Positions 1 to 58,529 of a DNA stretch of 64,000 nucleotides are shown piece after piece (the stretch's first letter is position 1; every line of letters starts with the position of its first letter). The stretch is from Polaribacter atrinae (GTDB taxonomy: Bacteria; Bacteroidota; Bacteroidia; Flavobacteriales; Flavobacteriaceae). The notes below the pieces were generated by a model. That model was not told the DNA's origin. It saw nothing but the letters and a program-made list of their open reading frames with translations, and did not search any database. The position numbers and the translations under genes are program-made. Location: assembly GCF_038023995.1 (NCBI RefSeq), contig NZ_CP150660.1, forward strand, positions 1,176,501 to 1,240,500, given 5' to 3'.

Positions 1-46
1 TATCAGCTAAATTCTCGCAACAAATCATAACACAAACACGTTGCCA
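1..46 (+). repeat. attC-like site A0, right half
   Basis: Only the right arm is inside the window: CGCAACAAATCATAACAC, then the spacer and GTTGCC. It shows that the array continues to the left. Confidence 0.8.
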
Positions 47-490
47 AAAATTGTCCAGAACCACTCAAACCGTTGGAAAAAAAACAATAAAACTCTTGAA
101 GTTTAAAATGTTAGACACTCTCTCGCGAGTCAAAAATTTAGTTTTTAATAAAAATTAAAAAAGGTTGAAAATATATAGATTCTTAAAACAAAGTTTGTGG
201 AATTTTTACTCAAACTTAAAACTTAAAAAGGCGGAGAAATCTCGTTTTTTAAGAATAAAAGAAACCACTCAAATGTTGAATTTCCAATTATTGCGGAATG
301 AAAATCTTGGCGGAATTATCACCCAAACGCAAAATTTAAAAATTAGGAAAGATCTCGTAAGTCAAAACATGAAAAAACACTCAATTGTTGAATTCCCAAT
401 ATTGCGGAATTAAAAATATTGGCGGAATTGTCACTCGAACGCTAAATCTCGAAAATAATAACCAAAATAGGAAAAACAAAAAACAACTTT
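41..490 (+). other. ORF-less cassette family B, copy 1
   Basis: The cassette body lies between A0 and A1 and closes on itself (GTTGCC at the start, GGCAAC at the end). The same sequence, diverged by scattered changes, recurs at 3774-4222 and 11648-12095. It contains about two degenerate internal units around CACTCAAATGTTGAATT and GGCGGAATTATCAC (near 265-360 and 375-465). A frame of 72-82 codons is open in all three copies, but it starts at TTG, runs through the internal repeat and looks like low-complexity translation. I treat the cassette as non-coding, possibly an RNA or structural cassette. Confidence 0.65.
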
Positions 491-625
491 AGGCAACACC
501 GTGTAAAAAAAATTGCTTAATTTTAGCTTAATAAAAATTAGTCGCATTTATATAAACTTCTATTTTCCTTCGGAAAATAGCCGTTCATTTTAATCGCAAC
601 TTTTCATAACACAACAACGTTAGGC
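491..625 (+). repeat. attC-like site A1
   Basis: Left box GGCAAC and arm GTGTAA; right arm ending TTTTCATAACAC, then GTTAGGC. An inner hairpin TTTTCCTTCGGAAAA sits in the middle. It joins ORF-less cassette B to the VWA cassette. Confidence 0.8.
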
Positions 626-653
626 ACAATGCTGAAAAACCAACGAACATTAA

Positions 654-1928
654 ATGAACACAGTAATTGAAATACTAATTGACAATTCCAATAGTATGGG
701 AGATTGCAAAGGAATTATAGAAAACTATAAAGACTACCTTTTGCCTGATGGCTCAACGAGATTGGAACTAGCAAAAAAAATCTTGCTATCGGAAATTATC
801 CCAACAATTGATTATGCCTCGAATATTACGGTCAGTCTTTTTTATTCATTAGAATCTACAGAAAAACCAAGAGAAATTGTTCAACCTATATTGCACAAAG
901 GTAAAAATGACGAACAATTAAAAAATGCGATTAAAGGAATTGCAATTCCACACGAAACAGGAGGCACACCAATTACAGACGCACTTTTGAATTGCATAAA
1001 TAGACTTAAAAATTATTCGGATTCTGACCGAAAAATAATACTCATAACTGATGGAGAAGAAACTGGGAAAAAAGACTATAAAATAGCTGCGAAAAATGCA
1101 CTTAAAGTTTCGGGAATTAGTTGCAACATATTTATTGTTGGAATATCATTAAAGCCAGAAGCACGAATTAAAGCCGAATCACTTGTAAAAGAAACAAAGG
1201 GCGAATACTTTCATTTAGAAACTTCAAATTATAATAAAACAACAATCCAAAATAAATTAATTCCGTTAAAAAGTGCATTAATAGTAGACACAGTAAATAA
1301 AATAACTTCAACGAAAATAGAGGAACCAAAAGTTGAAATAAACAAAACTCACGACGAAAAAAGTACACCAGAAAAAATTACAGCTTTAGAACAAAACGTT
1401 TCTGATAATAATAAATTATTAAACCTGATTTCTAAACAAGTTTCATTAATCCAATCTGGAATTTCAAAACAGAACGAAGAGGATGATTTCGATGATGAAA
1501 ACTTGATAGTTAGAGAAAACAGACAATTAAACGAGAAAGTTAGAAAGGCAAGTGAAACTTACCTCTTTGGACTATTGAAAAAGAAATTTGGAGAAAGAAT
1601 ACAATGGATGAACGAGAATGGAGAAAGCGGAGAAAGTTATGATTTTAAAGTATTGGACAGCATAGATAATAGTATAGAATATTACATTGAGTGCAAAGGC
1701 ACAATTGGAAAGGAGAAAGTGTTTTATATGACTAAAAACGAATGGTCTTTATTTCTAAAAAACAGTTCTAAATATCAAGTATATTTTATTTCAGATGCGT
1801 TGCTAAACCCAAAAGAGATTAAAATTGACAATTTAATGAATTGGATTCTGACCGAAAAGGTAGTTCCTTATCCGACACGAAACCGAAAACAAAAAGCTGA
1901 AAGAATAATATTTACCATAATCGAATAA
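654..1928 (+). CDS. VWA-domain protein with C-terminal NOV_C/DUF3883-like domain
   Basis: A 424-residue protein. An N-terminal von Willebrand A domain (about 1-200) has a full MIDAS: DxSxS at residues 10-14, Thr near 105 in GGTPITDA and Asp near 133 in ITDGEE. A charged linker (about 210-295) is followed by a C-terminal region (about 300-390) with YDFKV followed by YYIECKGT. That spacing of Asp and ExK resembles the NOV_C/DUF3883 fold, related to PD-(D/E)XK nucleases and found in restriction and defence proteins. It fills one cassette (GTTAGGCAC start, GTGCCTAAC end). A cytoplasmic defence or nucleic-acid-sensing role is inference; the VWA call is firm, the nuclease-like call moderate. Confidence 0.75.
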   Translation: MNTVIEILIDNSNSMGDCKGIIENYKDYLLPDGSTRLELAKKILLSEIIPTIDYASNITVSLFYSLESTEKPREIVQPILHKGKNDEQLKNAIKGIAIPHETGGTPITDALLNCINRLKNYSDSDRKIILITDGEETGKKDYKIAAKNALKVSGISCNIFIVGISLKPEARIKAESLVKETKGEYFHLETSNYNKTTIQNKLIPLKSALIVDTVNKITSTKIEEPKVEINKTHDEKSTPEKITALEQNVSDNNKLLNLISKQVSLIQSGISKQNEEDDFDDENLIVRENRQLNEKVRKASETYLFGLLKKKFGERIQWMNENGESGESYDFKVLDSIDNSIEYYIECKGTIGKEKVFYMTKNEWSLFLKNSSKYQVYFISDALLNPKEIKIDNLMNWILTEKVVPYPTRNRKQKAERIIFTIIE

Positions 1929-1936
1929 AGCACAGT

Positions 1937-2132
1937 GCCTAACAACGTATATAAAACATAGCTATTACAGGCTTTTCGAGAGGTTTTCGTGTATTTCCAA
2001 AGTCCGCCAAATTTTTTAATTTGGCTTTTTGAGAAAATAAGATAAAAAGAAAATTAAAAAATTTGGCTCGTGTATAACCCGAAAAGTTAGCGTCTATTTA
2101 AACGCTACGTTTCATATACAAGACCGTTGGGC
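1937..2132 (+). repeat. attC-like site A2, long form
   Basis: A site of about 195 bp. Left arm GTATATAAAACATAGC pairs with right arm GCTACGTTTCATATAC (14 of 16), with 3 spacer bases left (AAC) and 6 right (AAGACC). The closing box is GCCTAAC, a true RYYYAAC, and the outgoing core is GTTGGGC, a true GTTRRRY. The middle holds AT-rich inverted repeats around AAATTTTTTAATTTGG. Confidence 0.85.
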
Positions 2133-2138
2133 ATAATT

Positions 2139-2739: not shown

Positions 2740-2873
2740 GCCCAACACCATATATAATTTATTGCTTTCTTTTCGCTTACTTACGAAAATCCTCGCGGAT
2801 TTTCTTTGTCTGTAATTATTTACTAAATTAGTTGCTTAAACCACGCAACAAACCATATATAAACACGTTGTGC
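2740..2873 (+). repeat. attC-like site A3
   Basis: Box TATGCCCAAC matches the cassette start GTTGGGCATA over 10 bp. Left arm ATATATAATTTATTGC pairs with right arm GCAACAAACCATATAT. Inner hairpin GAAAATCC-TCGC-GGATTTTC. Outgoing core GTTGTGC. Confidence 0.9.
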
Positions 2874-3646: not shown

Positions 3647-3779
3647 GCACAACACCGTATAAACTTTATTGCTAGTTATAGCTCACTTGGGAAATTCCTT
3701 CGGAATTTCGCCGTTCGTGTTTTATTTAGTAAATTCATTGTTTAAACATCGCAACAAAGCTTATACAACAACGTTGCCA
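3647..3779 (+). repeat. attC-like site A4
   Basis: Box GCACAAC, left arm GTATAAACTTTATTGC, right arm GCAACAAAGCTTATAC. Inner hairpin GAAATTCCTTCGGAATTTC. Outgoing core GTTGCC. Confidence 0.85.
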
Positions 3780-4222
3780 AAAATTGCTCAAAAACCAATC
3801 AAAACGTTGGAAAAAAAACATTAAAACTTCTGAATTTAAAATGTTAGACACTCTCTCGCAAGTGAAAATTTTAGTTTTTAATAAAGATTTAAAAACTTTG
3901 AAAATATTTAGATTCTTAAAATAAAGTTTGTGGAATATTCTCTTAAACTCAAAATTAAAAAAGGCGGAGAAATCTCGTTTTTCAAGAATAAAAGAAATCA
4001 CTCAAATGTTGAGTTTCCAATTATTACGGAATGAAAATTTTTGTGGAATTATCACTCAAACGCTAAATTTGAAAATACGGAAAGATCTCGTAAATCAAAA
4101 TTTGAAAAACCACTTAAATGTTGAATTCCCAATATTACGGAATTAAAAATATTGGCGGAATTATCACTCGAACGTTAAATCTCGAAAATAATAACAAAGT
4201 CGGAAAAACAAAAAACAACTTT
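3774..4222 (+). other. ORF-less cassette family B, copy 2
   Basis: Almost identical to copy 3 at 11648-12095 and related to copy 1 at 41-490. It ends in GGCAAC and carries the same internal units. No convincing gene on either strand; a 72-codon TTG-initiated frame is judged spurious. Confidence 0.65.
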
Positions 4223-4355
4223 AGGCAACACCTTGTATAAAAAATTGCTAAATTTGGCTTAATCAAAAGTTTGTCCTTTCTTATAAACGCTATTTTTCCT
4301 GCGGAAAAATGCCGTTCATATTAAACGCAAATTTCCATACAAAAACACGTTAGCA
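4223..4355 (+). repeat. attC-like site A5
   Basis: Left arm TTGTATAAAAAATTGC pairs with right arm GCAAATTTCCATACAA; TTGTAT/ATACAA replaces the usual GTGTAT/ATACAC and is a compensated change. Nearly identical to A12. Outgoing core GTTAGCA. Confidence 0.85.
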
Positions 4356-4656
4356 AAAATAACTCGTTGGAACTGCTAAACAGAATTCTGCTGAACTGAA
4401 CGCAGAAAATAATCACTCGATTTCTGACAATCATTCTGCTGAAAATTACTCGAATTCTTCCGAACGGAACTTTGAAAATTTACTCGATTTCTGACAGAAA
4501 TTATGCTGAAAAAATCACTCAAAATCGGAACCAAACTTATCGGAATTTATAAAAACAGAGTTTTGTAAAATGAACAAAATCGCTTTCGGAATTTACTCAA
4601 ATCTGTAAATTCGGAAATGGAATCTCGAAACCTGCTCACTAAAATGTCTCGTTACT
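4350..4656 (+). other. ORF-less cassette family C, copy 1
   Basis: A body of about 300 bp without a credible ORF. It is repeated with the following site, apparently without change, at 18220-18662. The ends match over 10 bp (GTTAGCAAAA / TTTTGCTAAC). It is made of short recurring words such as ATTCTGCTGAA, TTCTGACA and ACTCGATT. Confidence 0.7.
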
Positions 4657-4792
4657 TTTGCTAACAGCGTGTATAAAAAATTGCTTATATTGGCTTAACC
4701 AAAAGTGGTTGCTCGTTTGCTTGCTTCTGATTTTCCTTCGGAAAATCCTCGCGCACAAACTCGCAACTTTTCATACACGCAACACGTTGTAA
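4657..4792 (+). repeat. attC-like site A6
   Basis: Box TTTTGCTAAC, left arm GTGTATAAAAAATTGC, right arm GCAACTTTTCATACAC. Middle hairpin GATTTTCCTTCGGAAAATC. The right spacer is GCAACAC instead of AAACAC. Outgoing core GTTGTAAAAC. Confidence 0.85.
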
Positions 4793-5494: not shown

Positions 5495-6324
5495 TTAAAG
5501 GCTTTTTTCGTTGGGTTTTCAAATTTATTGTATCAATAGTAGTAATTATTTTTTCATTTTTTTTATTAGGTACTTACGTTTATACAGACGGAATACCAGT
5601 AGCGTCAGATTATTTAATTGAAAGTTTGCCTGAAAGTGTTTCTACAGATTTAGGCAAGGAATTAAGAAACGAGGTTTTAAGTAAATACGACATTGACGAT
5701 TACAAAACCGAAAAAATAAATCTTTTCACTAAAGAATTGAACTTTGAAAAAGATGTAAAAGTATATGTAATAAAATCAAGACAATTCAATGCTTTTGCAA
5801 CACCAGGAAAATATATTTTTGTTTATAGTGGAGTTTTTGACAAATTAAATAGTTACGAAGAATTAGCAAGTCTTTTATCGCACGAATACACACACATAGA
5901 TAAAAATCACGGTTTACGTTCTGTTGGCAGAAGTTTTGGTTATGAAATTTTTACTTCTGTATTTTTTAGTGATGATTTAAAAGAGCAAATTTTTGACAAT
6001 TCAAATATGTTAATCAATCTTGAATACTCAAGAGCATTTGAAAAAGAAGCTGATTTAAATACAATTAAATTACTTCAAAAAGAAAATATTGATTTAAATG
6101 GTATGCTTTCTTTGCTAAAAATAATGCGAGAAATTGAACCACGAAGAATATCAAATAGTGAATTGAGCGACCATCCAAATACAATCGAAAGAATTGAGTA
6201 TATTGAGGACGAAATTGAGATTACCAATAATAACTCAACAATAAATTATGAATTGGAAACGATATTTTCGGAGATTAAAAACAGCAAATATAAAACGTTT
6301 TACAACAACGTATATAGCTCATAG
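5494..6324 (+). CDS. M48-family membrane zinc metalloprotease
   Basis: The frame is open from before 5494. It encodes a hydrophobic segment (VFKFIVSIVVIIFSFFLLG) followed by an M48 peptidase domain with SLLSHEYTHIDKNHG (HExxH) and, downstream, EKEADLNTIKLL as the likely third ligand. There is no ATG or GTG ahead of the domain; TTG at 5626 would remove the membrane segment. The simplest readings are translation by -1 frameshift from the GYF/RDD gene, or a frameshift mutation in an original fusion. The last 8 codons read into site A7 and use a stop supplied by it. Confidence 0.7.
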   Translation, partial: VKGFFRWVFKFIVSIVVIIFSFFLLGTYVYTDGIPVASDYLIESLPESVSTDLGKELRNEVLSKYDIDDYKTEKINLFTKELNFEKDVKVYVIKSRQFNAFATPGKYIFVYSGVFDKLNSYEELASLLSHEYTHIDKNHGLRSVGRSFGYEIFTSVFFSDDLKEQIFDNSNMLINLEYSRAFEKEADLNTIKLLQKENIDLNGMLSLLKIMREIEPRRISNSELSDHPNTIERIEYIEDEIEITNNNSTINYELETIFSEIKNSKYKTFYNNVYSS

Positions 6325-6497
6325 CTAATTAGTTGTTTAATCGAAGTTAAGACTTATTTGGAAAGTCGCCAAATTTTTAAATTTGACGATTTCCAATGAA
6401 AAAAGATAAATAGTAAAATTTAAAAATCTGGCTTGTGCTTAATCCGAAAAAATATCGCTAATTCACACGCTACGAGCCATATACAAAACCGTTGGCA
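6297..6497 (+). repeat. attC-like site A7, long form
   Basis: Box GTTTTACAAC is an exact 10-bp match to its cassette start GTTGTAAAAC. Left arm GTATATAGCTCATAGC pairs with right arm GCTACGAGCCATATAC. Against A2, AAA/TTT in the arms has become GCTC/GAGC, a compensated change. Outgoing core GTTGGCAAAC. Confidence 0.9.
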
Positions 6498-7691: not shown

Positions 7692-7826
7692 TTTGCCAAC
7701 ACCGTGTATAATTAATTGCTTGGTTTTAGCCAATTTACGAAAGTCCTCGCGGACTTTCTATCTGTGTTTTATTTGCTAACTTTAGTGCTTAAAACACGCA
7801 ACTAATCATACACAAACACGTTGTAG
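7692..7826 (+). repeat. attC-like site A8
   Basis: Box TTTGCCAAC (cassette start GTTGGCAAA). Arms GTGTATAATTAATTGC and GCAACTAATCATACAC pair 14 of 16. Inner hairpin GAAAGTCC-TCGC-GGACTTTC. Outgoing core GTTGTAGCAA. Confidence 0.9.
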
Positions 7827-8322: not shown

Positions 8323-8459
8323 TTGCTACAACACCGTGTAATAAAAATTGCTTAATTTTAGCTTAACCAAAAGTTGTTGCTTTTTTATTCACTTCTATTT
8401 TCCTGTGGAAAATAGCCGTTCACAAAAATCGCAACTTTCAATACACAACAACGTTGTGT
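8323..8459 (+). repeat. attC-like site A9
   Basis: Box TTGCTACAAC. Left arm GTGTAATAAAAATTGC; right arm GCAACTTTCAATACAC. Middle hairpin CTATTTTCCTGTGGAAAATAG. Outgoing core GTTGTGTGCA. Confidence 0.85.
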
Positions 8460-8738: not shown

Positions 8739-9142
8739 TTTCAATTTTGCTCTTAATTCCGTGGATAATCTTTGGTTTCAAAAATCCGAATCTCAATTTA
8801 TTCGGTTTAAATCAAACAAAAAAGTCCTTGCTTTTACTTTTAGGAATTGAAATTCTATTTTTTCTAATTCTTTATCTGACTTTACCAGAACCGACTTCAA
8901 AAATTGCAGGACTTCAAAGTTTTGCGTGGAATTATTTTATCTTGTATTATGCAAAAGGAATTATACCAACAACCGTTTTGAGCGAATATTTAAACGGAAA
9001 TTTAGGAGATAAAATCGATTTGAATTATCAATATGTATATTTAATCGTAAGTTTAATAATCGACTATTTTATTTTGCTAATTATTAGTCCGAATATTAGA
9101 AAAATATGGAAAAAGAAAAAGCCTGCACACAACACCGTATAA
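8735..9142 (+). CDS. Membrane protein, unknown function
   Basis: 135 residues with three or four hydrophobic segments; resembles a small CPBP/DUF-type integral protein only in general shape. The start ATG overlaps the previous stop by 4 nt. The C-terminus (KPAHNTV) is encoded by the left end of site A10, which also provides the stop. Confidence 0.55.
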   Translation: MISILLLIPWIIFGFKNPNLNLFGLNQTKKSLLLLLGIEILFFLILYLTLPEPTSKIAGLQSFAWNYFILYYAKGIIPTTVLSEYLNGNLGDKIDLNYQYVYLIVSLIIDYFILLIISPNIRKIWKKKKPAHNTV

Positions 9143-9259
9143 AATTAATTGCTTGGTTAAAGCCTATTTACGAAAGTCCTCGCGGACTTTCTATCTGTGA
9201 TTTATTTGCTAACTTTAGTGCTTAAAACACGCAACTAATCTTATACAAACACGTTGTGG
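9124..9259 (+). repeat. attC-like site A10
   Basis: Box TGCACACAAC matches cassette start GTTGTGTGCA over 10 bp. Left arm GTATAAAATTAATTGC; right arm GCAACTAATCTTATAC. Hairpin GAAAGTCC-TCGC-GGACTTTC. Outgoing core GTTGTGGTTT. Confidence 0.9.
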
Positions 9260-11518: not shown

Positions 11519-11653
11519 AAACCACAACACGGTATATAAAAAATAGCAGTTAAGTGCAAACTTCAAAGTTTATTCTTTTCTGCTATTTTCATTCACAAAT
11601 TGAAAATAATAGCTTATTTATTCTGCTACTTTTCATATACCAACACGTTGCCA
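11519..11653 (+). repeat. attC-like site A11, variant middle
   Basis: Box AAACCACAAC pairs with cassette start GTTGTGGTTT over 10 bp. Left spacer ACG and arm GTATATAAAAAATAGC; right arm GCTACTTTTCATATAC. Here the inner stem ends in TAGC/GCTA instead of TTGC/GCAA, again compensated. Confidence 0.85.
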
Positions 11654-12095: not shown

Positions 12096-12228
12096 AGGCA
12101 ACACCTTGTATAAAAAATTGCTAAATTTGGCTTAATCAAAAGTTTGTCCTTTCTTATAAACGCTATTTTTCCTGCGGAAAAATGCCGTTCATTTTAAACG
12201 CAAATTTCCATACAAAAACACGTTGGGC
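12096..12228 (+). repeat. attC-like site A12
   Basis: Twin of A5, one visible base difference in the middle. Left arm TTGTATAAAAAATTGC. Outgoing core GTTGGGC, unlike A5, which shows that the unit between cores was copied. Confidence 0.85.
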
Positions 12229-12877: not shown

Positions 12878-13014
12878 TATGCCCAACACCGTACAAAATT
12901 AATTGCTTGCTTTTTGCTTACTTACGAAAATCCTCGCGGATTTTCTTTGTCAGTAATTATTTATTAACTTAATTGCTTAACCAACGCAACTAATCTTGTA
13001 CAAACACGTTGGCA
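12878..13014 (+). repeat. attC-like site A13
   Basis: Left arm GTACAAAATTAATTGC pairs with right arm GCAACTAATCTTGTAC: GTACAA/TTGTAC replaces GTGTAT/ATACAC, a strong compensated change shared with A19. Outgoing core GTTGGCAACA. Confidence 0.9.
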
Positions 13015-13651: not shown

Positions 13652-13785
13652 GTTGCCAACAGCGTATATAATTTATTGCTAGTTCTAGCCTACTTACGAA
13701 AATCCTCGCGGATTTTCTATTCGCTTTTTATTTGCTAAATTAGGTGCTTAAAACACGCAACAAACCATATACAAACACGTTGTGT
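13652..13785 (+). repeat. attC-like site A14
   Basis: Box TTGCCAAC; left spacer AGC, arm GTATATAATTTATTGC, right arm GCAACAAACCATATAC. Hairpin GAAAATCC-TCGC-GGATTTTC. Outgoing core GTTGTGTGTA. Confidence 0.9.
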
Positions 13786-14237: not shown

Positions 14238-14372
14238 TACACACAACACCGTATAAAAATAATTGCTATTTTGGGCTTAATAAAAGGTCGTTGCACTTTT
14301 GTTACGTCTGATTTTCCTGCGGAAAATCCTCGCACACAAAACCGCAACTATTCTTATACATAAACGTTGTAG
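14238..14372 (+). repeat. attC-like site A15
   Basis: Box TACACACAAC pairs with GTTGTGTGTA. Left arm GTATAAAAATAATTGC; right arm GCAACTATTCTTATAC. Hairpin GATTTTCCTGCGGAAAATC. Outgoing core GTTGTAGCAC. Confidence 0.9.
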
Positions 14373-14407: not shown

Positions 14408-14875
14408 ATGAACGAAACAAAAACACACGGATACCAATTAGCATCAAAAGGAAAAAGACTTATAGCTTCACTTGTTGAAGGAATAATATTTATTCTTTTA
14501 ACTTTGGGAGTTTATCTAATATTAGGGAAATCTATTTCTGAATATTGGAATAGTGACTTTGAATTAATTGAAGTAGTTTACTCTGCTATTACAGGATTTA
14601 TTGTTGGAGCAATATTTTATCCAATGTTTATAGGGAATTTAGGACATAGAATTTTTAATTTGAAAGTGATTTCAGAAGAAACTGGAAAAGATTATAATAA
14701 AGCAGAAAAAGGAGCGATTCGTGAATGTTTGAAATATGCTTTAGGATATTTATTAATTCCAATTATTTGGATATTATGGGACGAAAAAAATCAGAATTTA
14801 TATGACAAACTAACAAAAACGTTAGTGGTTGAAAAAACAAGAATGAATAAAAACGTGCTACAACACCGTATATAA
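14408..14875 (+). CDS. RDD-family membrane protein
   Basis: 155 residues with three hydrophobic segments. RDD pattern YQLASKGKRLIASLVEG, then GNLGHRIFNLKVISEETGKD and IIWILWDEKNQNLYDKLTKT. Closely similar to the RDD part of 4838-5494. The C-terminal tail (NVLQHRI) is encoded by the left end of A16. Confidence 0.8.
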   Translation: MNETKTHGYQLASKGKRLIASLVEGIIFILLTLGVYLILGKSISEYWNSDFELIEVVYSAITGFIVGAIFYPMFIGNLGHRIFNLKVISEETGKDYNKAEKGAIRECLKYALGYLLIPIIWILWDEKNQNLYDKLTKTLVVEKTRMNKNVLQHRI

Positions 14876-14991
14876 TTTATTGCTGGCTTCTTGCCTACTT
14901 GCGAAAGTCCTCGCGGACTTTCTTGGTCGGTAATTATTTACTAAATTAGTTGCTTAAAACACGCAACAAACCATATACAACAACGTTGTCT
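14855..14991 (+). repeat. attC-like site A16
   Basis: Box GTGCTACAAC matches start GTTGTAGCAC over 10 bp. Arms GTATATAATTTATTGC / GCAACAAACCATATAC. Hairpin GAAAGTCC-TCGC-GGACTTTC. Outgoing core GTTGTCTATA. Confidence 0.9.
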
Positions 14992-15860: not shown

Positions 15861-15992
15861 ACAACACCATATATAATTTATTGCTGGCTTTTTGTTTACT
15901 TACGAAAATCCTCTCGGATTTTCTTTGTCAGTAATTATTTACTAAATTAGTTGCTTAAACTACGCAACAAACCATATATAAACACGTTGGCA
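15856..15992 (+). repeat. attC-like site A17
   Basis: Box TATAGACAAC pairs with GTTGTCTATA (10 bp). Arms ATATATAATTTATTGC / GCAACAAACCATATAT. One inner stem base changed (TCTC loop). Outgoing core GTTGGCAAAC. Confidence 0.9.
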
Positions 15993-16543: not shown

Positions 16544-16679
16544 TTTGCCAACACCGTGTATAATTAATTGCTAGGTTCGTGCTTACTTACGAAAGTCCTC
16601 CCGGACTTTCTTGGTTCGTGTTTTATTTAGTAAGTTTCTTGCTTAAACACGCAACTAATCATACACAAAATCGTTAGCA
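16544..16679 (+). repeat. attC-like site A18
   Basis: Arms GTGTATAATTAATTGC / GCAACTAATCATACAC. Hairpin GAAAGTCCTCCCGGACTTTC. The spacer before the core is AAAATC instead of AAACAC. Outgoing core GTTAGCAAAC. Confidence 0.9.
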
Positions 16680-17137: not shown

Positions 17138-17274
17138 TTTGCTAACACCGTACAAAATTAATTGCTTTATTTCTGGCTCACTTACGAAAGTACTCGCGTA
17201 CTTTCTTTGTCTGTTATTATTTATTAAATTAACTGCTTAACCACCGCAAAAAATCTTGTACAACAACGTTACCC
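17138..17274 (+). repeat. attC-like site A19
   Basis: Box TTTGCTAAC. Arms GTACAAAATTAATTGC / GCAAAAAATCTTGTAC. Inner hairpin GAAAGTAC-TCGC-GTACTTTC, where CC/GG of other sites became AC/GT, a compensated change. Outgoing core GTTACCCATA. Confidence 0.9.
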
Positions 17275-18091: not shown

Positions 18092-18225
18092 TATGGGTAA
18101 CACCGTATATAATTAATGGCTGGTTTTAGCTTGCTTACGAAAATCCTCGCGGATTTTCTATCTGGTGTTTATTTGCTAAATTAGGTGCTTAAACACGCCA
18201 CTAATCATATACATAAACGTTAGCA
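18092..18225 (+). repeat. attC-like site A20
   Basis: Left arm GTATATAATTAATGGC pairs with right arm GCCACTAATCATATAC; the inner end is GGC/GCC instead of TGC/GCA, compensated. Outgoing core GTTAGCAAAA. Confidence 0.9.
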
Positions 18226-18525
18226 AAAATAACTCGTTGGAACTGCTAAACAGAATTCTGCTGAACTGAACGCAGAAAATAATCACTCGATTTCTGACAA
18301 TCATTCTGCTGAAAATTACTCGAATTCTTCCGAACGGAACTTTGAAAATTTACTCGATTTCTGACAGAAATTATGCTGAAAAAATCACTCAAAATCGGAA
18401 CCAAACTTATCGGAATTTATAAAAACAGAGTTTTGTAAAATGAACAAAATCGCTTTCGGAATTTACTCAAATCTGTAAATTCGGAAATGGAATCTCGAAA
18501 CCTGCTCACTAAAATGTCTCGTTAC
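18220..18525 (+). other. ORF-less cassette family C, copy 2
   Basis: Appears identical to 4350-4656, and the following site A21 appears identical to A6. No ORF; exact conservation at a distance of 14 kb indicates a recent copy event of the complete cassette. Confidence 0.7.
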
Positions 18526-18662
18526 TTTTGCTAACAGCGTGTATAAAAAATTGCTTATATTGGCTTAACCAAAAGTGGTTGCTCGTTTGCTTGCTTCTGA
18601 TTTTCCTTCGGAAAATCCTCGCGCACAAACTCGCAACTTTTCATACACGCAACACGTTGGCA
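18526..18662 (+). repeat. attC-like site A21
   Basis: Same sequence as A6 up to the core, where the following cassette (GTTGGCAAAC) replaces GTTGTAAAAC. This places the exchange point at the GTT core. Confidence 0.9.
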
Positions 18663-19428: not shown

Positions 19429-19565
19429 GTTAGCCAACACCGTGTAAAAAAAATTACTTATTTCTGTAATTATCATTTGTTCTGTTTTTCCTTATTTATT
19501 ATATTTAAATTCGGAAAGTATTAGCGTTTTTATATCGCAACTTTCCTTACACAAACCCGTTGGCA
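19429..19565 (+). repeat. attC-like site A22, diverged
   Basis: Box GTTAGCCAAC is a 9 of 10 match to its start GTTGGCAAAC. Arms GTGTAAAAAAAATTAC and GCAACTTTCCTTACAC; the middle lacks the usual hairpin. Outgoing core GTTGGCAGTA. Confidence 0.8.
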
Positions 19566-20108: not shown

Positions 20109-20247
20109 TACTGCCAACACCGTGTATAAAAAATTGCGTAGTTTAGTGCTTAACCAAAGTTAGTTGCATTTTTTGCTACTTCTGATTTTCCTGCGGAAAA
20201 TCCTCGCACACAAAAAACGCAACTTTCCATACACAAAACCGTTGGGC
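20109..20247 (+). repeat. attC-like site A23
   Basis: Box TACTGCCAAC pairs with GTTGGCAGTA (10 bp). Arms GTGTATAAAAAATTGC / GCAACTTTCCATACAC. Outgoing core GTTGGGCGTA. Confidence 0.9.
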
Positions 20248-20900: not shown

Positions 20901-21035
20901 TACGCCCAACACCATATATAATTTATTGCTGGCTTTTTGCTTACTTACGAAAATCCTCGCGGATTTTCTATTCAGTTTTTATTTACTAAATTAGGTGCTA
21001 AATCACGCAACAAACCATATATAAACACGTTAGCT
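20901..21035 (+). repeat. attC-like site A24
   Basis: Arms ATATATAATTTATTGC / GCAACAAACCATATAT. Outgoing core GTTAGCTTTA, followed after 25 nt by the first IS30 copy. Confidence 0.9.
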
Positions 21036-23435: not shown

Positions 23436-23565
23436 CGCTAACACGCAATATAGCAAAAAGCGGTGAAGTGCTTAATTGGAACGTTTTTAGCCCGTTTCGG
23501 CTTCATCACGGTTTGATAGTGTTTCGCTCGCAATCCGCTTCATGCCATATTGCCAACCGTTGTGG
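23436..23565 (+). repeat. attC-like site A25, divergent family
   Basis: Box CGCTAAC, spacer ACG, arm CAATATAGC; right arm GCCATATTG, spacer CCAACC, core GTTGTGG. The primary sequence is unlike the main family but the 3/6 spacer geometry is kept. Middle stem AAGCGGTGAAG / CTTCATCAC. Confidence 0.7.
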
Positions 23566-27082: not shown

Positions 27083-27216
27083 AGCTAACACCGCATATAA
27101 TTTATTGCTGGCTTCTCGCCTACTTACGAAAGTCCTCGCGGACTTTCTTGGTCGGTAATTATTTACTAAATTAGTTGCTTAAACCACGCAACAAACCATA
27201 TACAAACAAGTTACCT
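27083..27216 (+). repeat. attC-like site A26
   Basis: Box GCAGCTAAC does not match its own cassette start GTTGTGGTAC. Arms GCATATAATTTATTGC / GCAACAAACCATATAC. The spacer is AAACAA instead of AAACAC. Outgoing core GTTACCTGC. Confidence 0.85.
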
Positions 27217-27236
27217 GCAAGCTAAAAAAAATCTAA

Positions 27237-28070: not shown

Positions 28071-28211
28071 ATATTTCTATTTTATTTTAAATTATTGAAA
28101 ATCAATGTTTTGATAATTAATTAAGATTTAATTAACACAGGTTTTTGCTATTTGGACTGTTTTCATAAGTTATTGAACCGTATCAATAAATACAAAGCCT
28201 CTCCTCCATTC

Positions 28212-28219
28212 TATCTTTG
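28212..28219 (+). promoter_or_regulatory. -7 box before the aldehyde dehydrogenase gene
   Basis: TATCTTTG, 58 bp before the ATG at 28278. No well-spaced TTG found upstream. Confidence 0.45.
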
Positions 28220-28277
28220 TACCATAATTAAAATGCTTGTCACAAAGCATATATTCACATTAAAAAAACTTACAATT

Positions 28278-29780: not shown

Positions 29781-29809
29781 TTAAAACTTTATAAAATAAG
29801 TTTATAATA

Positions 29810-29835: not shown

Positions 29836-29883
29836 ATTGTTTTAATCAAAGTCTTAATAAAAGATTTTAATCACTTTTTAATT

Positions 29884-30398
29884 ATGAAAAAAACATTCTA
29901 TCTTTTCCGTTATATCAGCTGGACTGCAAAATAGGTTCACTTCTTGGCTCACTGTTACTTTTTATCGTTGGTGCTTTAAAAACCATTAATGCTTTTAGAG
30001 TTGTCATCTTCAATTATATTCCTGAAAATAAAGCACATTTACATCCTGCAGATATAGCCACTACTTATCTTATAAAATCTTTAGATACGTTTTTAATAGC
30101 ATTGGTGCTATTCATTTTTGCACACGGAGTTTATACTTTGTTTATTTCAAACAAAATATATGATGATGGAAATGGTGTTTTAAAATGGATTAGAACACCA
30201 AATATTGGTCATTTAAAAAATGTGCTTGCCGAAGTTATTGTCATTATTCTTTTTGTGAAATTTCTTGAGGTAGTATTTGTAAATATTGACAACCTTAAAT
30301 GGGAGATTTTAATACTTCCAGCATCTATTGTGCTATTAGCATTGGGTTTAAAATTTTTAAGTCTTAATAAAGAAGATATTGATAAAACTAAAAAATAA
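29884..30398 (+). pseudogene. YqhA/UPF0114-family membrane protein, frameshifted
   Basis: The ATG at 29884 gives MKKTFYLFRYISWTAK and then a stop. In the next frame IGSLLGSLLLFIVGALK continues without a break to 30398, as in UPF0114 (YqhA) proteins. One base lost or gained near 29930 explains it. An internal start at 30102 would lack half the protein. Confidence 0.75.
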
Positions 30399-30404
30399 TA
30401 GCTT

Positions 30405-31400: not shown

Positions 31401-31403
31401 GTC

Positions 31404-31904
31404 ATGAGTAGAGGATTTGTAAAAGAAGATGACCAAGAGGAAATTCCTATGGTACCACCAAGAGCCGACTTACCAGAAGGTGTAACTAATTATGTAACGC
31501 AAGTTGGTATGGATGAACTTTTAATTGAAAAACAAAAATTGATTAATGAAAGAGAGCATCTTGACATTTCAAACGAAAAGGAAAGCCGAATAGCCTCCAA
31601 TTATATAAACGCTAAATTGCAATTGTTGAAAAACCGAATTGCTACAGCAAAAATAGTAGATCTAAACAATCAACCAAAAAACATAATTCGATTTGGTGCA
31701 TTAGTAACTCTAAAAATTGAAAATAAAACAGCGCCTGAACACTATCAAATTGTAGGTGTAGATGAAGCTGATATTTCTAAAGGAAAAATCGCATTCATTT
31801 CACCAATTGCTAGACTTTTGATAAACAAAAAAGTGGGAGAAAAAGCAGTGTTGAAACTAGCTAAAGAAGACAGGTATTTTAAAATTATTAATATCAAATA
31901 TTAA
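31404..31904 (+). CDS. GreA/GreB-family elongation factor
   Basis: 166 residues. GRE layout: an N-terminal coiled coil (GMDELLIEKQKLINEREHLD) and a C-terminal FKBP-like part (RFGALVTLKIENKTAPEHYQ, then ISPIARLLINKKVGEKAVLK). GreB-like proteins help stalled RNA polymerase cleave backtracked RNA. An unusual cargo for a cassette. Confidence 0.85.
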   Translation: MSRGFVKEDDQEEIPMVPPRADLPEGVTNYVTQVGMDELLIEKQKLINEREHLDISNEKESRIASNYINAKLQLLKNRIATAKIVDLNNQPKNIIRFGALVTLKIENKTAPEHYQIVGVDEADISKGKIAFISPIARLLINKKVGEKAVLKLAKEDRYFKIINIKY

Positions 31905-31924
31905 TTATATAAAAACTAAATTAA

Positions 31925-33031
31925 ATGTACACAAAGCGTAATTATTCTTTAAAGCAGATTCTACTTTGGACACGGAAAGATATTTTTTATTTCGTAATAC
32001 TTTCAACAGTACCTGTAATACTTTATACCGTTTTTCGTTGGTATTGGTTACATTTACCTTGGCTACCTATTAGTTTAATAGGTACTGCAGTAGCTTTCAT
32101 TATTGGTTTTAAAAATAATGCTTCTTACGACCGTTTATGGGAAGCACGAAAAGTTTGGGGAGGCATTGTAAATACTTCTCGATCTTTAACTATAATGCTT
32201 AACGATTATGTAAATAATGAACATGCAAAAAAAATACTTTCAGATCAAGAATTATTCGAAATTAGAAAGACATTTATATTGCGTCACATAGCTTGGATGA
32301 GTTCGTTACGTCACGCTTTACGCACACCAAAGTCTTGGGAAGCAGAACCAAGAAAGAAAACTGGTATAGACTATAGAAAACACTTAGAAATTAGAGAGCA
32401 AAAATATTCACTTGAAGAAGAACTAAAAGGCTATTTATCTGAAGAAGAAAAGGACTATGTTTTAAGTAAAAAAAATAAGCAAGCAGCCTGTTTAAATTTA
32501 CAATCAAAACATTTAAGTGCACTTAAAACTGAAGGCTATGTTTGGGAATTTGCCCATTTAGAGATTGAAAAGATGTTTGTTGAATTATTTACTCTTCAAG
32601 GTAAAGTAGAACGTATTAAAAATTTCCCTTATCCTCGTCAGTTTGCCACATTAAATAAGTTTTTTGTTTGGATTTTTGTTATTCTCCTACCATTTGGTAT
32701 GATGAATGAATTTGATAAAATTGGGATAATCATCGTTGAAAGCATGGAACAATACAAACCTTATCCTAATTCAGGATTCCATTATTTAATAGAATTAATG
32801 GGGCATTATTTTGTATGGTTTACTGTGCCTTTTAGCGTCATCATATCATGGGTTTTTAATACTATGGAGCGTGTAGGTGAAGCCTCTGAAAACCCTTTTG
32901 AAGGAGAAGGCAATGATGTGCCAATTACAACAATGTCTCGAGACATAGAGATTGATATTCGTCAAATGATTGGTGATCATGAAAATAATATACCTAAACC
33001 AGAGCCTGAAAAATTTAATACTCAATTATAA
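31925..33031 (+). CDS. Bestrophin-family channel protein
   Basis: 368 residues. Typical bacterial bestrophin pattern: FKNNASYDRLWEARKVWGGI near residue 63, long helical middle, FAHLEIEKMFVELFTLQGKV, and late FPYPRQFATLNKFFVWIFV. Chloride or anion channel in the inner membrane. Same operon direction. Confidence 0.9.
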   Translation: MYTKRNYSLKQILLWTRKDIFYFVILSTVPVILYTVFRWYWLHLPWLPISLIGTAVAFIIGFKNNASYDRLWEARKVWGGIVNTSRSLTIMLNDYVNNEHAKKILSDQELFEIRKTFILRHIAWMSSLRHALRTPKSWEAEPRKKTGIDYRKHLEIREQKYSLEEELKGYLSEEEKDYVLSKKNKQAACLNLQSKHLSALKTEGYVWEFAHLEIEKMFVELFTLQGKVERIKNFPYPRQFATLNKFFVWIFVILLPFGMMNEFDKIGIIIVESMEQYKPYPNSGFHYLIELMGHYFVWFTVPFSVIISWVFNTMERVGEASENPFEGEGNDVPITTMSRDIEIDIRQMIGDHENNIPKPEPEKFNTQL

Positions 33032-33433
33032 TTTTATGTTTCGGCTCAAATTCTAGGAGCTATTTTTGCAAGTGGTTTACTAAAATTTACATTCTCTAAA
33101 AACTTAACGTTAGGAACTACAATTCCTTCTGGCTAGTTAGTACAATCGTTCATTTTAGAATTTGTTCTGACTTTCTTTTTAATGCTTACAATTTTAGGAG
33201 TAACATCTAAAAAAGAATTTTCATATATAGCAGGTCTTATAATTAGATTAGTTGTTACTGGAATTATTTTATTTTCAGGTCCAATTTCTGGAGGCTCGTT
33301 TAATCCTGCGAGAAGTTTGGCACCTGCAATTGTATCTGGAAACTTCATTGCTCTTTGGGTTTATATTACTGCACCAACTTTAGGAGCAATAGTCGCAATG
33401 TTAATTTGGAATTCATTTAACAAAACGGAGTAA
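33032..33433 (+). pseudogene. Aquaporin (MIP) family, C-terminal remnant
   Basis: FYVSAQILGAIFASGLLKF, then an in-frame TAG at 33134, then FILEFVLTFFLMLTILGV and SGGSFNPARSLAPAIVSG with the second NPA-type box (NPAR). The N-terminal half with the first NPA is missing. The box that closes this cassette follows immediately. Confidence 0.8.
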
Positions 33434-33561
33434 AGCCAGCAGGTAACAAAGAACTGAGCTAAAAAACAACTCTTTTCTTCATTAAATTTACGCACTATTA
33501 TTTTAGGCTCATAATGCTATCAATTAGTATTTTGAGCTTTTATTTTTTATGTAATTACTAC

Positions 33562-34599: not shown

Positions 34600-34752
34600 A
34601 GAACTGAACGTGATTTTTAGTAGAAAAGAGAGAGGATTATCAATGTTGTCGAAGTCTTGGCTTCACCGTATATATTAACCTTAATTCTCTCTTTTATTCT
34701 TTCTGATTTATATACTTAAATTTAGTCTTTTATTATAAAATGCTAACTTAAG
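34600..34752 (-). ncRNA. Putative IS110 bridge RNA, copy 1
   Basis: The non-coding DNA between the element end and the transposase start folds into a stem (34624-34639 with 34682-34695, AAAAGAGAGA against TCTCTCTTTT). Its loop holds CACCGTATATA (34664-34674), an exact 11-nt copy of the array-site left arm in which the element is inserted. Nearer the gene, AGAACTGA (34600-34607) repeats the element's own end (33450-33457). The order, target-like loop then donor-like segment then gene, is that of known IS110 bridge RNAs. Not tested. Confidence 0.55.
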
Positions 34753-34894
34753 ACGTATATAAAAAATTGCTGCAAAGTGCTTAATTCATTGGCTTTTTTA
34801 TATATTTATGGTCAGTTTAAATTCGAAAGGTTGGTGATTATTTACACACAACTTTTCATATACAAACACGTTGTAGGTAAGCTGGCGAAAGAAA

Positions 34895-36717: not shown

Positions 36718-36917
36718 GCCTAACAATGTATATAAAAAATAGCGCAAGTAGTTGCTAACATTAAGGCTTGGGCATTTTTGGGAAGTTGCCAAATTTTTAA
36801 ATTTGACAAATTTCTAAAAATAAAATAATTAGTAAAATTTAAAAATTAGGCTTGTGTTTAATCCAAAAAGTTATCGCTTATTTTCAGCGCCACTAATCAT
36901 ACACAAAACCGTTGTAC
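36718..36917 (+). repeat. attC-like site A28, long composite form
   Basis: Box GCCTAAC (RYYYAAC), left arm GTATATAAAAAATAGC of the long family; the right end GCCACTAATCATACAC, AAAACC, GTTGT belongs to the A20 type. Interior AAATTTTTAAATTTG repeats as in A2. Apparently a recombinant between two site families. Confidence 0.75.
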
Positions 36918-41917: not shown

Positions 41918-42054
41918 GTTGCACAACAACGTGTATAATTAATTGCTTGGTTTTAGCCAATTTACGAAAGTCCAAACGGACTTTCCTAGTTCATGTTTTA
42001 TTTATTACTTTAGTGCTTAAATCACGCAACTAACCAAACACAAACACGTTGCCA
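41918..42054 (+). repeat. attC-like site A29
   Basis: Box GTTGCACAAC against the cassette start GTTGTACAAC, where the IS30 scar has replaced the original bases. Arms GTGTATAATTAATTGC / GCAACTAACCAAACAC. Hairpin GAAAGTCCAAACGGACTTTC. Outgoing core GTTGCCAGTA. Confidence 0.85.
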
Positions 42055-42628: not shown

Positions 42629-42764
42629 TACTGGAAACAATGTATAACCGCAATTACGGCGGATTCAACTACGTCCGAATCCACTCGGAATTGCTAACGC
42701 CAGTTCTTAACCGAAAAACATTAACTTTAATCCCGTAACTGACGGTTACACGAAACCGTTATAA
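42629..42764 (+). repeat. attC-like site A30, divergent family
   Basis: Box TACTGGAAAC matches start GTTGCCAGTA in 9 of 10. Arm GTATAACCG / CGGTTACAC with 3 and 6 spacer bases (AAT, GAAACC). The middle segment (CAATTACGGCGGATTC ... GGAATTGCTAACGCCAG) recurs in A32. Confidence 0.75.
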
Positions 42765-45270: not shown

Positions 45271-45403
45271 GGCTACAACACCGTATATAATTTATTGCTA
45301 GTTCTAGCCTACTTACGAAAATCCTCGCGGATTTTCTATTCGGTTTTTATTTGTTAACTTAGTTGCTTAACCACGCAACAAACCATATACAACAACGTTA
45401 GCA
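45271..45403 (+). repeat. attC-like site A31
   Basis: Box GGCTACAAC. Arms GTATATAATTTATTGC / GCAACAAACCATATAC. Outgoing core GTTAGCAAAC, whose following 24 nt equal those after A18. Confidence 0.9.
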
Positions 45404-49509: not shown

Positions 49510-49640
49510 CAGGTTAATGTGTATAATTAATGGCTAGTTATCGCCTACTTACGTAAATCCTCGCAAATTTGCTATTCGGTTTTTATTTGCTAAGTTAGGT
49601 GCTGAAATCACGCCACTAATCATAGCCTAGAACGTTAGCC
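49510..49640 (+). repeat. attC-like site A33, damaged left box
   Basis: The arms are still the main family (GTGTATAATTAATGGC / GCCACTAATCATAGCC). The cassette start GTTACATGTAACCTG predicts a closing CAGGTTACATGTAAC; the sequence instead reads CAGGTTA then ATGTGTATAA. About a dozen bases including the AAC appear to be lost. Outgoing core GTTAGCCGT. Confidence 0.75.
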
Positions 49641-56035: not shown

Positions 56036-56169
56036 TACTCACAATAACGTGTATAAGTAATAGCGACTTGGTTTTTTAATTCAAGTCGCTATTCTTTTTT
56101 ATTTTGTAAATTACTTTCCGAAAGTGATCGCAAAAATTTCGCTAATACTCATACACAAATACGTTGCCA
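56036..56169 (+). repeat. attC-like site A37
   Basis: Closing box TACTCACAAT matches the expected TACTCGCAAC in 8 of 10 and lost the conserved AAC. Arms GTGTATAAGTAATAGC / GCTAATACTCATACAC. Middle hairpin TCAAGTCGC-style rather than TCGC. Outgoing core GTTGCC. Confidence 0.75.
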
Positions 56170-57386: not shown

Positions 57387-57517
57387 CCAACAACGTGTAG
57401 TAAAAATTGCTAAATTAGTGCTTAACCTAAGGTAGTTGCAATTTTGTTACGTCTGATTTTCCTGCGGAAAATCCTCGCACACAAAACCGCAACTTCTCAT
57501 ACACAAAACCGTTGCAA
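57386..57517 (+). repeat. attC-like site A38
   Basis: Box GCCAAC begins at the last base of the fic stop codon. Arms GTGTAGTAAAAATTGC / GCAACTTCTCATACAC. Hairpin GATTTTCCTGCGGAAAATC. Outgoing core GTTGCAAGTA. Confidence 0.85.
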
Positions 57518-57591
57518 GTAATTGGCGGAAACCACTCAGACACTTGAATTTTGAAAAATTGAAAAAGTGCTACAAGCTGAAAAAAACCAAC
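57512..57591 (+). other. ORF-less mini-cassette
   Basis: Only 80 bp of body between two sites, with perfectly matching 10-bp ends (GTTGCAAGTA / TACTTGCAAC). It contains GGCGGAAACCACTCA, a word shared with the family B cassettes. It shows that a cassette needs no gene. Confidence 0.75.
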
Positions 57592-57727
57592 TACTTGCAA
57601 CACCGTTTATAAAAAATTGCTAAATTGTGCCTTATCAAAACTAGTCGCATTTTTGTAAACCCCTATTTTCCTGCGGAAAATAGCCGTTCACATAAATCGC
57701 AACTTTTATTACACAAACACGTTGTGG
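57592..57727 (+). repeat. attC-like site A39
   Basis: Box TACTTGCAAC. Arms GTTTATAAAAAATTGC / GCAACTTTTATTACAC. Hairpin CTATTTTCCTGCGGAAAATAG. Outgoing core GTTGTGGTTA. Confidence 0.88.
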
Positions 57728-57740
57728 TTAATTTTAAAAA

Positions 57741-58088
57741 ATGACGATAGAACAATTAAAATCGAACATAAAATGGTGGGAATCCAAAAGATGGATTTAT
57801 AATGTTGCTGTTGGACTTTTCGGGATTTTTGGAATTTACGATGGACTTTCAAGAGGAGAATACTCTTGGACAATAGACGATACAATCGGAATTTTGATTT
57901 GGGGAATTGGAGCAAATATTTTTTATTCATTAGGAATTTTATTGGAATTATTTGACTGGTATTACCTGAAAAATAAAGTCGGAATTAAAAGGTTCCGAAT
58001 GATATTCTTCGTAATCGGAATTTTATTCAGTTGCTTTTGGACTTTATGGTGTAGTTGGCTTTATTTTGCAAAACCACATTTATGGTAA
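57741..58088 (+). CDS. Small membrane protein, unknown function
   Basis: 115 residues with three hydrophobic segments (IYNVAVGLFGIFGIYDGL; IGILIWGIGANIFYSLGILL; MIFFVIGILFSCFWTLWCSW). Three-helix membrane proteins of this size are frequent in cassette arrays. Its end overlaps the leader of the next gene. Confidence 0.6.
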   Translation: MTIEQLKSNIKWWESKRWIYNVAVGLFGIFGIYDGLSRGEYSWTIDDTIGILIWGIGANIFYSLGILLELFDWYYLKNKVGIKRFRMIFFVIGILFSCFWTLWCSWLYFAKPHLW

Positions 58089-58108
58089 AACAAATCAAGA
58101 AGTCTAAA

Positions 58109-58522
58109 ATGAACGAAATCTATTTATCTAAAATAAATGAAGAACAAAATCGAGAGGTCATTGTCGAAGGCGATGACCATTCTGTTTGGGCCTATGTCTT
58201 AAAACATTCGGAGGAAAGTATCGGAATTGAATTTGACGGATTTATATGTTCTCGTGGAACTCTTGTTGAGTCAAGTAAAGAAATAAAAGACTATATCAAT
58301 AACGCTATTTCTGCGCCATTAATGAAAAGGTATTCGAATGAATTCTCTATCCAACGAGAAATTGAAAATAAGGACATAGAAATTGATTGGAACGGAAACG
58401 AAATAAGTATAAAACTAAACGGGATTGATTTTCTGATTATGGATTTAAAAAACCGAAAATCTTACTCAAAATCAACATCTGAAAATGGTCCTTATGGAAT
58501 TCCAATAACTGAAAAAAACTAA
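58109..58522 (+). CDS. Hypothetical protein
   Basis: 137 residues from ATG 58109; longer in-frame starts at 58055 and 58082 would overlap the previous gene. Beta-rich start (REVIVEGDDHSVWAYVLK) of a kind seen in immunity-like proteins. No family assigned. Stop lies inside the closing box. Confidence 0.55.
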   Translation: MNEIYLSKINEEQNREVIVEGDDHSVWAYVLKHSEESIGIEFDGFICSRGTLVESSKEIKDYINNAISAPLMKRYSNEFSIQREIENKDIEIDWNGNEISIKLNGIDFLIMDLKNRKSYSKSTSENGPYGIPITEKN

Positions 58523-58529
58523 CCACAAC
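58519..58529 (+). repeat. attC-like site A40, left box only
   Basis: TAACCACAAC pairs exactly with the cassette start GTTGTGGTTA. The site is cut one base later by IS110 and no right half follows, so the array ends here. Confidence 0.8.

What the first reader, a model, noticed from the sequence alone, without database searches (positions are those of the whole stretch)
1..58529. A 58-kb integron-like cassette array in a Flavobacteriaceae-type genome
About 40 palindromic sites alternate with short + strand genes. Each site has the same geometry: box ending AAC, 3 bases, stem of 8-16 bp, variable middle, stem, 6 bases, GTT. The arms covary at least seven ways between sites (for example GTGTAT/ATACAC, GTACAA/TTGTAC, TTGTAT/ATACAA, and AAA/TTT versus GCTC/GAGC in A2 and A7), which shows that the folded strand is what is selected. 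Integrons are known mainly from Proteobacteria and a few other phyla, so an array of this size in Bacteroidota would be of wide interest.
Basis: partly seen in the sequence, partly recalled or inferred. Interest (0 to 1): 0.95.

Follow-up and report, generated by a model that had tools for sequence, protein, structure and literature searches.

The report
Bacteroidota integrons without IntI integrase
In this likely Polaribacter genome more than 150 small gene cassettes are strung between DNA hairpins of one kind, such hairpins occur in 122 of 148 genera sampled from its family, and the cassettes are predicted to be captured and shuffled by a recombinase that lacks the part thought essential in known integrons, which would make this a second, largely overlooked way for bacteria to stockpile genes.

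Summary
The window holds the right end of a ~173-kb array (135 sites, one strand); a second array (34 sites) lies elsewhere on the contig, directly behind a tyrosine recombinase gene. The sites are attC-like hairpins with compensated arms (48 doubly changed cells against 15.5 shuffled). The bottom strand is the one kept foldable: top-strand A.C (bottom G.T) outnumbers top G.T 177 to 1 in outer arms and 485 to 8 in the inner stem; it folds better in 184 of 186 sites. Each cassette's start is complementary to its own end; like cassettes match up to GTT and not beyond (36 of 36 pairs).

In 22 loci with the recombinase family, 110 of 110 nearby sites lie downstream on the same strand, usually with an attI-like insertion point behind the gene. 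The recombinase lacks the IntI-specific I2 domain (58 residues where IntI1 has 100); no IntI passes the cut-off in 149 family genomes. It works like an integron but fails the IntI test. Recombination is untested.

The parts
1..46 (+). right end of an attC-like site cut by the window edge
   Evidence: 1-42, E 0.037
495..621 (+). attC-like site
1941..2128 (+). attC-like site (long middle)
2744..2869 (+). attC-like site
3651..3775 (+). attC-like site
3776..4351 (+). ORF-poor cassette with its site; near copy at 11650-12224; full-length matches in other genomes of the genus, in one of them directly behind an attI match
4227..4351 (+). attC-like site
4352..4788 (+). ORF-poor cassette with its site, identical to 18222-18658; identity ends within 4 bases of GTT on both sides
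4663..4788 (+). attC-like site
6304..6493 (+). attC-like site (long middle)
7698..7822 (+). attC-like site
8330..8455 (+). attC-like site
9131..9255 (+). attC-like site
11526..11649 (+). attC-like site
12100..12224 (+). attC-like site
12885..13010 (+). attC-like site
13658..13781 (+). attC-like site
14245..14368 (+). attC-like site
14862..14987 (+). attC-like site
15863..15988 (+). attC-like site
16550..16675 (+). attC-like site
17144..17270 (+). attC-like site
18099..18221 (+). attC-like site
18222..18658 (+). second copy of cassette 4352-4788
18533..18658 (+). attC-like site
19436..19561 (+). attC-like site
20116..20243 (+). attC-like site
20908..21031 (+). attC-like site; end of the dense stretch
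23440..23561 (+). diverged site (hairpin geometry only, not in the R1 list)
27087..27212 (+). attC-like site
27213..33447 (+). large multi-gene cassette: begins GTTACCTGC, ends GCAGGTAAC
   Evidence: sequence, genes
34750..34872 (+). attC-like site, its left end replaced by an IS110 copy
36722..36913 (+). weak attC-like site
   Evidence: (36824-36913, E 0.049)
41925..42050 (+). attC-like site
42636..42760 (+). weak attC-like site
   Evidence: E 0.0031
45277..45399 (+). attC-like site
49516..49636 (+). attC-like site
56043..56165 (+). attC-like site
57389..57513 (+). attC-like site
57599..57723 (+). attC-like site
58520..58529 (+). left end of the last site (TAACCACAAC), then an IS110 copy

Best explanation
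The array is a chain of gene cassettes between attC-like hairpins, most likely an integron-type system in which a XerA-like tyrosine recombinase without the IntI-specific domain would excise and insert cassettes by cutting the folded bottom strand at G|TT. Shown by sequence: each cassette runs from TT after one hairpin to the G at the end of its own hairpin; its first about 11 bases are complementary to its last bases before AAC, so the outer arm is complete in a free circle but not in the array; like cassettes share sequence up to GTT; the bottom strand is the one kept foldable; arrays of this type lie downstream of genes of one recombinase family, on the same strand, and where the first cassette could be traced it mostly starts 26-125 bp behind that gene. 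Inferred: the recombinase binds the arms of the folded site and of attI and exchanges one strand. For this window's array the likely recombinase is IntB (C1:2,777,080-2,778,303), because the array head is a near copy of the attI-like sequence behind the closest relative of IntB in another genome of the genus; IntA (C1:3,854,044-3,855,168) heads the second array. That either protein acts on these sites is untested.
For: Own-cassette arm complementarity of 5 or more contiguous bases: 106 of 123 (array A), 28 of 30 (array B), 60 of 67 (11 of 18 loci of other genomes that had countable cassettes), against 7, 1 and 2 for the two sides of the same site; totals 748, 192 and 411 against maxima of 199, 77 and 123 in 3000 permutations each. 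Bottom-strand bias 177:1 and 485:8; lower bottom-strand energy in 184 of 186, random windows 57 of 150. In 36 of 36 like-cassette pairs (not independent: one five-copy family gives 10) the shared run past GTT is 6 nt or less, identity 0.98 before and 0.41 after. 110 of 110 sites downstream and on the same strand in 22 recombinase loci, 21 of 22 with a site. Cassette start traced by arm match in 24 of 28 loci tried, in 18 of 28 at 26-125 bp from the gene. One cassette lies mid-array here and directly behind an attI match in G734. The array-A head is 87% identical over 71 columns to the attI-like sequence behind the closest relative of IntB in G131. Catalytic residues invariant in 19 of 19 aligned (roles by homology, recalled). 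Cassette ORFs forward 98 against 5 of 126 (A) and 26 against 5 of 33 (B). In print: one of two attC sites tested from Polaribacter phage P12002L was recombined into attI1 by IntI1, bottom strand only (PMC9892861, section 13 read); that phage has three full-length R1 matches and a short one at E < 0.001, but which site was tested could not be checked, and the arms of the two phage units looked at do not match.
Against: No recombination was observed; everything is comparative. Four of 24 genomes chosen for few contigs have sites but no family recombinase at E <= 1e-30 (G071 with 26 sites, G059 11, G142 5, G143 5), and the window's own array has none beside it. IntI's I2 helix is described as the innovation that allows single-strand recombination (PMC7790495, passages seen), and it is absent here. 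Three of 22 recombinase genes carry an internal stop (L063, L067, L086). No cassette start was found behind IntB in this genome, nor in three other loci. In one small locus (L074, 3 cassettes) arm matches did not exceed permutation.
Confidence: 0.85

Rival explanations
1. The sites are ordinary attC sites moved by a canonical IntI that acts in trans or has been lost; the neighbouring recombinase family is incidental.
For: One attC site from a Polaribacter phage works with IntI1 in E. coli (PMC9892861); some genomes have sites without the family recombinase.
Against: 0 of 149 family genomes have a match over the TIGR02249 cut-off, which IntI1 and another IntI pass with 507.5 and 446.7 bits against 265; 110 of 110 nearby sites are downstream of the family gene on its strand; cassette starts mostly lie directly behind it.
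Confidence: 0.07
2. The hairpins are transcription terminators or RNA elements between genes.
For: They follow forward genes and fold.
Against: Transcripts carry the top-strand sequence, where the conserved A.C mismatches break pairing; selection keeps the bottom strand foldable. It does not explain start-end complementarity within cassettes or ends at GTT. No Rfam family reaches its gathering score in the window.
Confidence: 0.02
3. A hairpin-recognising transposon (IS200/IS605 type) or Xer-dif type modules (pdif) spread the repeats.
For: Both kinds move unlike DNA by way of hairpins or Xer sites (recalled).
Against: The units hold unlike genes in one orientation and are linked to one tyrosine recombinase family with attI-like heads; the sites are about 125-nt asymmetric hairpins. 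No search for a TnpA was made.
Confidence: 0.04

Closest known systems
Sedentary chromosomal integrons (Vibrio-type, IntI/attI/attC)
   Same: Large one-direction cassette arrays, imperfect hairpins folding on the bottom strand, units ending at G|TT, attI-like head, ORF-poor cassettes, defence-like and toxin-antitoxin genes among cassettes.
   Different: Recombinase without the I2 domain; core GTTRRRY in only 17 of 249 sites; outer arm long and cassette-specific with A at position 8 in 156 of 156; recombinase gene read towards the array, whereas intI of known integrons is usually read away from it (recalled); inverted repeat with arms of 7 bp or more in 11 of 18 attI-like sequences.
XerA / archaeal Xer recombinases (NF040815; PDB 5hxy, 4a8e)
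   Same: Best NCBIfam match of the recombinases (201.8 and 214.3 bits, cut-off 220) and best fold matches; no I2.
   Different: Extra N-terminal part of about 95 residues; linked to cassette arrays rather than, as recalled, to a single dif site.
Salinibacter ruber integron and Bacteroidetes In0 elements (IntegronFinder 2.0, PMC9024848)
   Same: Earlier reports of integron parts in the phylum (passages seen); reviews also list Bacteroidota among phyla with integrons (PMC8618304, PMC9668308, passages).
   Different: Those rest on IntI detection; here no IntI was found and the system is widespread in the class.
attC sites of Polaribacter phage P12002L (PMC9892861)
   Same: The phage carries R1-type matches; one of its attC sites recombined with attI1 through IntI1.
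   Different: Section 13 and the passages seen do not link them to host arrays or to a non-IntI recombinase.

Membership tests
Integron (IntI, attI, attC) | Integrase of the IntI family with the I2 additional domain | tested here: not met
   58 residues between the KDR block and HxLRH in 19 of 19 against 100 in IntI1; TIGR02249 189.6 and 205.0 bits against a cut-off of 265, in two stretches around the missing part, while IntI1 scores 507.5; 0 of 149 genomes over cut-off
Integron (IntI, attI, attC) | Tyrosine recombinase with intact catalytic residues | tested here: met
   R231, K256, H320, R323, H346, Y355 invariant in 19 of 19 aligned (roles recalled); three further genes of the 22 carry stops
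Integron (IntI, attI, attC) | attI next to the integrase gene, first cassette inserted there | tested here: met
   cassette start traced in 24 of 28 loci, 18 of 28 at 26-125 bp; one kind of left flank found in 17 of 97 genomes of the genus, backward control in none
Integron (IntI, attI, attC) | attC: imperfect hairpin, structure conserved over sequence, bottom strand favoured | tested here: met
Integron (IntI, attI, attC) | Core sites GTTRRRY / RYYYAAC | tested here: not met
   17 and 18 of 249
Integron (IntI, attI, attC) | Extrahelical bases that the I2 helix reads | tested here: inconclusive
   a 3/6-nt asymmetric spacer (208 of 249) could serve; no structure of a complex
Integron (IntI, attI, attC) | Cassettes, mostly of one orientation, exchanged as units ending at G|TT | tested here: met
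   the cut cannot be placed within GTT because all partners carry GTT
Integron (IntI, attI, attC) | Integrase-catalysed excision and insertion | not testable with these tools
   needs an assay
Integron (IntI, attI, attC) | Cassette promoter Pc and SOS control of the integrase | not tested
   IntA follows DnaE- and DinB-like genes beside a divergent HTH/S24 gene here, but none of these was found at the 22 other recombinase loci or at IntB's
XerA | Curated NF040815 score | tested here: not met
   201.8 and 214.3 bits against 220

The most novel reading that the evidence does not exclude
Bacteroidia carry a second integron system, built on an XerA-like recombinase that never had (or lost) the I2 helix, that captures and shuffles cassettes as folded bottom strands; its cassettes carry private complementary end arms that close the outer arm of the site only in the free circle and may pair the two ends of a cassette before excision.
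Probability: 0.7. Interest if true: 0.95.

Novelty: new variant of a known kind. Interest (0 to 1): 0.9.

Why it matters
Integrons are thought to depend on IntI, whose I2 helix is described as the innovation that made single-strand recombination possible (PMC7790495, passages seen). A recombinase family without I2 at the head of attC-like arrays across a class would mean that the trick was solved twice, or that I2 is not needed for it; both are directly testable. It would also mean that a large gene reservoir in Bacteroidota, with anti-phage and toxin-antitoxin genes among its cassettes, has been missed because searches for integrons start from the IntI domain.

Tried and rejected
RNA-element reading: no Rfam match, and the strand bias speaks against a transcript-level role. 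Canonical IntI in this genome or the family sample: not found; the 14 control genomes have none over the cut-off either, so I scored two IntI proteins as positive controls afterwards and both pass. SOS-operon reading of IntA: its neighbours were not found at other loci, so it stays a remark. Control recombinase loci: 3 sites in 9 loci; one of these controls (L077) is a broken family member by its place in the tree, so the control was not clean. The 150 matches are all that call scored (of 6812 candidates), so the genome-wide number of sites is a lower bound; at most 23 candidates per genome were scored. Geometry scan without R1 in 28 loci chosen mostly outside the family: 39 downstream on the same strand against 2, 9 and 2 in the other three positions; 12 of the 28 had none downstream on the same strand. 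Tree: two IntI lie outside the array family, but their place among archaeal and other relatives is unresolved. tRNA search of the window: none. Paper searches with integron and Bacteroidota, Flavobacteriaceae, Flavobacteria or Polaribacter terms listed no report of this system in the held library; preprints and most subscription journals are not held.

Rows dropped: sites without AAC/GTT ends (5 of 135, 2 of 34) and cassette bodies under 60 or over 4000 nt were left out of the arm counts; the outer-arm wobble count used unique cassettes with at least 4 contiguous matches (156 of 186); the energy test used unique sites under 141 nt (186); the alignment A5 holds IntA, IntB and 17 of the 22 loci (left out: three with stops, L058 without a start found, L087); attI was tried at 18 of the 22 loci (not L070, L072, L075, L087), IntA's and IntB's loci and 8's; the palindrome test used 18 of the 24 traced heads; L191 was fetched and not used.
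Full report
Where it is. The window is C1:1,176,501-1,240,500 of a single 4.01-Mb contig.

The sites. I aligned 24 sites from the window, folded them (13 pairs, 8 with double changes) and built a covariance model, R1, that covers AAC to GTT only. Against shuffles and slid controls the structure stands out. R1 finds 135 sites in the 184 kb that hold the window's array, 135 of 135 on the + strand, and 34 in the 58 kb around a second array, 34 of 34 on the - strand (34 of the 126 matches, which also searched other genomes). In the window 32 sites pass E <= 0.002.

Cassettes are units. For 24 consecutive window cassettes the bases after GTT match the reverse complement of the bases before the next AAC over 6.0 nt on average, against 1.1 nt for the two sides of one site; summed 144, against a maximum of 70 in 100,000 permutations. 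One search repeats this for array A (106 of 123 with 5 or more), array B (28 of 30) and loci of other genomes (60 of 67 cassettes, from 11 of 18 loci). Single small loci prove little: L074 with 3 cassettes does not exceed permutation. R1 does not see these arms, so the test is independent of how the sites were found. The natural reading is that the arms meet in the free circle and are parted when the cassette is inserted at G|TT. Like cassettes inside the genome agree: 36 pairs (one five-copy family gives 10 of them), identity 0.98 in the last 28 nt before G and 0.41 in the 28 nt after GTT, no shared run over 6 nt past GTT in 36 of 36; on the left the run is 6 nt or less in 30 of 36. Four of the 36 pairs join arrays A and B; at a looser threshold 6 of 128 cassette families occur in both. 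The 576-base unit at 3776-4351 has matches at E <= 1e-30 in 8 of 97 genomes of the genus, this one included; they are full length in G733, G767, G730 and G725, and in G734 it runs to the contig end and begins directly behind an attI match.

Which strand folds. In the outer arms A.C oppositions on the top strand, which are G.T pairs on the bottom strand, number 177 against 1 of the reverse kind; in the inner stem 485 against 8 (the inner columns are part of R1, the outer arms are not). Position 8 after GTT is A in 156 of 156 unique cassettes with an arm, opposite C in 132. With DNA energies the bottom strand is more stable in 184 of 186 circle-form and 180 of 186 array-form sites; random windows give 57 of 150. 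Genes run on the top strand, so transcripts carry the poorly folding version; this argues against terminators.

The recombinase. Array B starts behind a 374-aa tyrosine recombinase, IntA. In 24 genomes of the family chosen for few contigs, relatives reach E <= 1e-30 in 19 and sites occur in 23; four have sites but no such relative. I fetched 20-kb stretches around 22 of these genes and 9 other tyrosine recombinases. R1 gives 113 sites: 110 in the 22 loci, 110 of 110 downstream on the same strand, one locus (L075) empty, and 3 in the 9 controls, one of which is a broken family member. The loci with downstream sites include Algoriphagus, a Sphingobacteriales MAG, a Bacteroidales MAG, Alkalitalea and the plasmid. 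A geometry scan without R1 gives 39 against 2, 9 and 2 in 28 loci, 12 of them without any on the downstream same strand.

attI. Using the arm rule on the first detected site, the start of its cassette was found in 24 of 28 loci tried, in 18 of them 26-125 bp behind the recombinase gene. Two kinds of left flank occur...ATATAACCA|GTT and a palindrome ending about 4 nt before GTT; 11 of 18 flanks have perfect arms of 7 bp or more, against 63 of 2000 shuffles. In the genus the first kind is found in 17 of 97 genomes with up to 3 mismatches and the backward control pattern in none.

The window's own head. Array A starts at C1:1,061,703 behind a sequence 87% identical over 71 columns to the one that lies 33 bp behind the closest relative of IntB in G131. 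In this genome IntB lies at 2.777 Mb, and no cassette start was found behind it. So the window's array was most likely IntB's and became separated from it; IntB or IntA would act in trans. This last step is inference.

Contents. Of 107 cassette proteins scanned (of 121 forward ORFs found), Pfam and PADLOC hits include ParE toxins, a Fic protein, a ThsB-like protein, type IIG restriction-modification, an OLD-like ATPase and acetyltransferases (only the 25 commonest families of each are listed). That is the usual make-up of large chromosomal integrons (recalled).

Prior work. IntegronFinder 2.0 names Salinibacter ruber as the complete Bacteroidetes integron beside those of Chlorobi and Ignavibacteriae (PMC9024848, passages); a 2008 survey and two later papers list the Bacteroidetes/Chlorobi group or Bacteroidota among phyla with integrons (PMC2426708, PMC8618304, PMC9668308, passages). 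An attC model study used 11 taxa, none of them Bacteroidota (PMC8352920, passages). A phage study tested two attC sites of Polaribacter phage P12002L; one recombined with attI1 through IntI1, bottom strand only (PMC9892861, section 13). That phage has four R1 matches at E < 0.001, one of them short; the arms of the units looked at do not match. If the tested site is one of them, this kind of site is already known to recombine in the hands of IntI1; I could not check which site was used.

Verdict. It works like an integron and fails the IntI membership test, so I file it as a new variant of a known kind. Recombination by this family remains to be shown.

Noticed in passing
window 21055, 23584, 34895, 42783, 45422: Five IS30 copies (NF033563, one copy scanned) all start 23-24 nt after the GTT of a site and in the same orientation, as if the element targets the outer arm of these sites.
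   Followed up: partly
window 33448-34752 and 58530-59830: Two IS110 copies sit at the same place inside a site, just after AAC in the 3-nt spacer; this recalls the IS1111-attC group that targets attC (recalled).
   Followed up: partly
window 27213-33447: A 6.2-kb cassette with matching ends holds several genes, among them an AraC-type regulator and an aldehyde dehydrogenase; far larger than the median of 740 nt.
   Followed up: partly
window 15320-15356: A stretch resembling the 3' half of a tRNA lies in a cassette; ARAGORN finds no tRNA.
   Followed up: no
L014:9044-15207: In this genome IntA is preceded by DnaE-like, DinB-like and divergent HTH/S24 genes; not found at the other loci tested.
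   Followed up: yes
L178 (Chryseobacterium sp. SNU WT5 plasmid): A family relative annotated 'site-specific tyrosine recombinase/integron integrase' with two weak R1 sites downstream lies on a plasmid, so the system may be mobile.
   Followed up: partly
G733: Nine places match the attI pattern in one genome, some close together, as if attI itself had been duplicated.
   Followed up: no
G071: 26 sites but no family recombinase at E <= 1e-30 and no TIGR02249 match at 1e-20.
   Followed up: no
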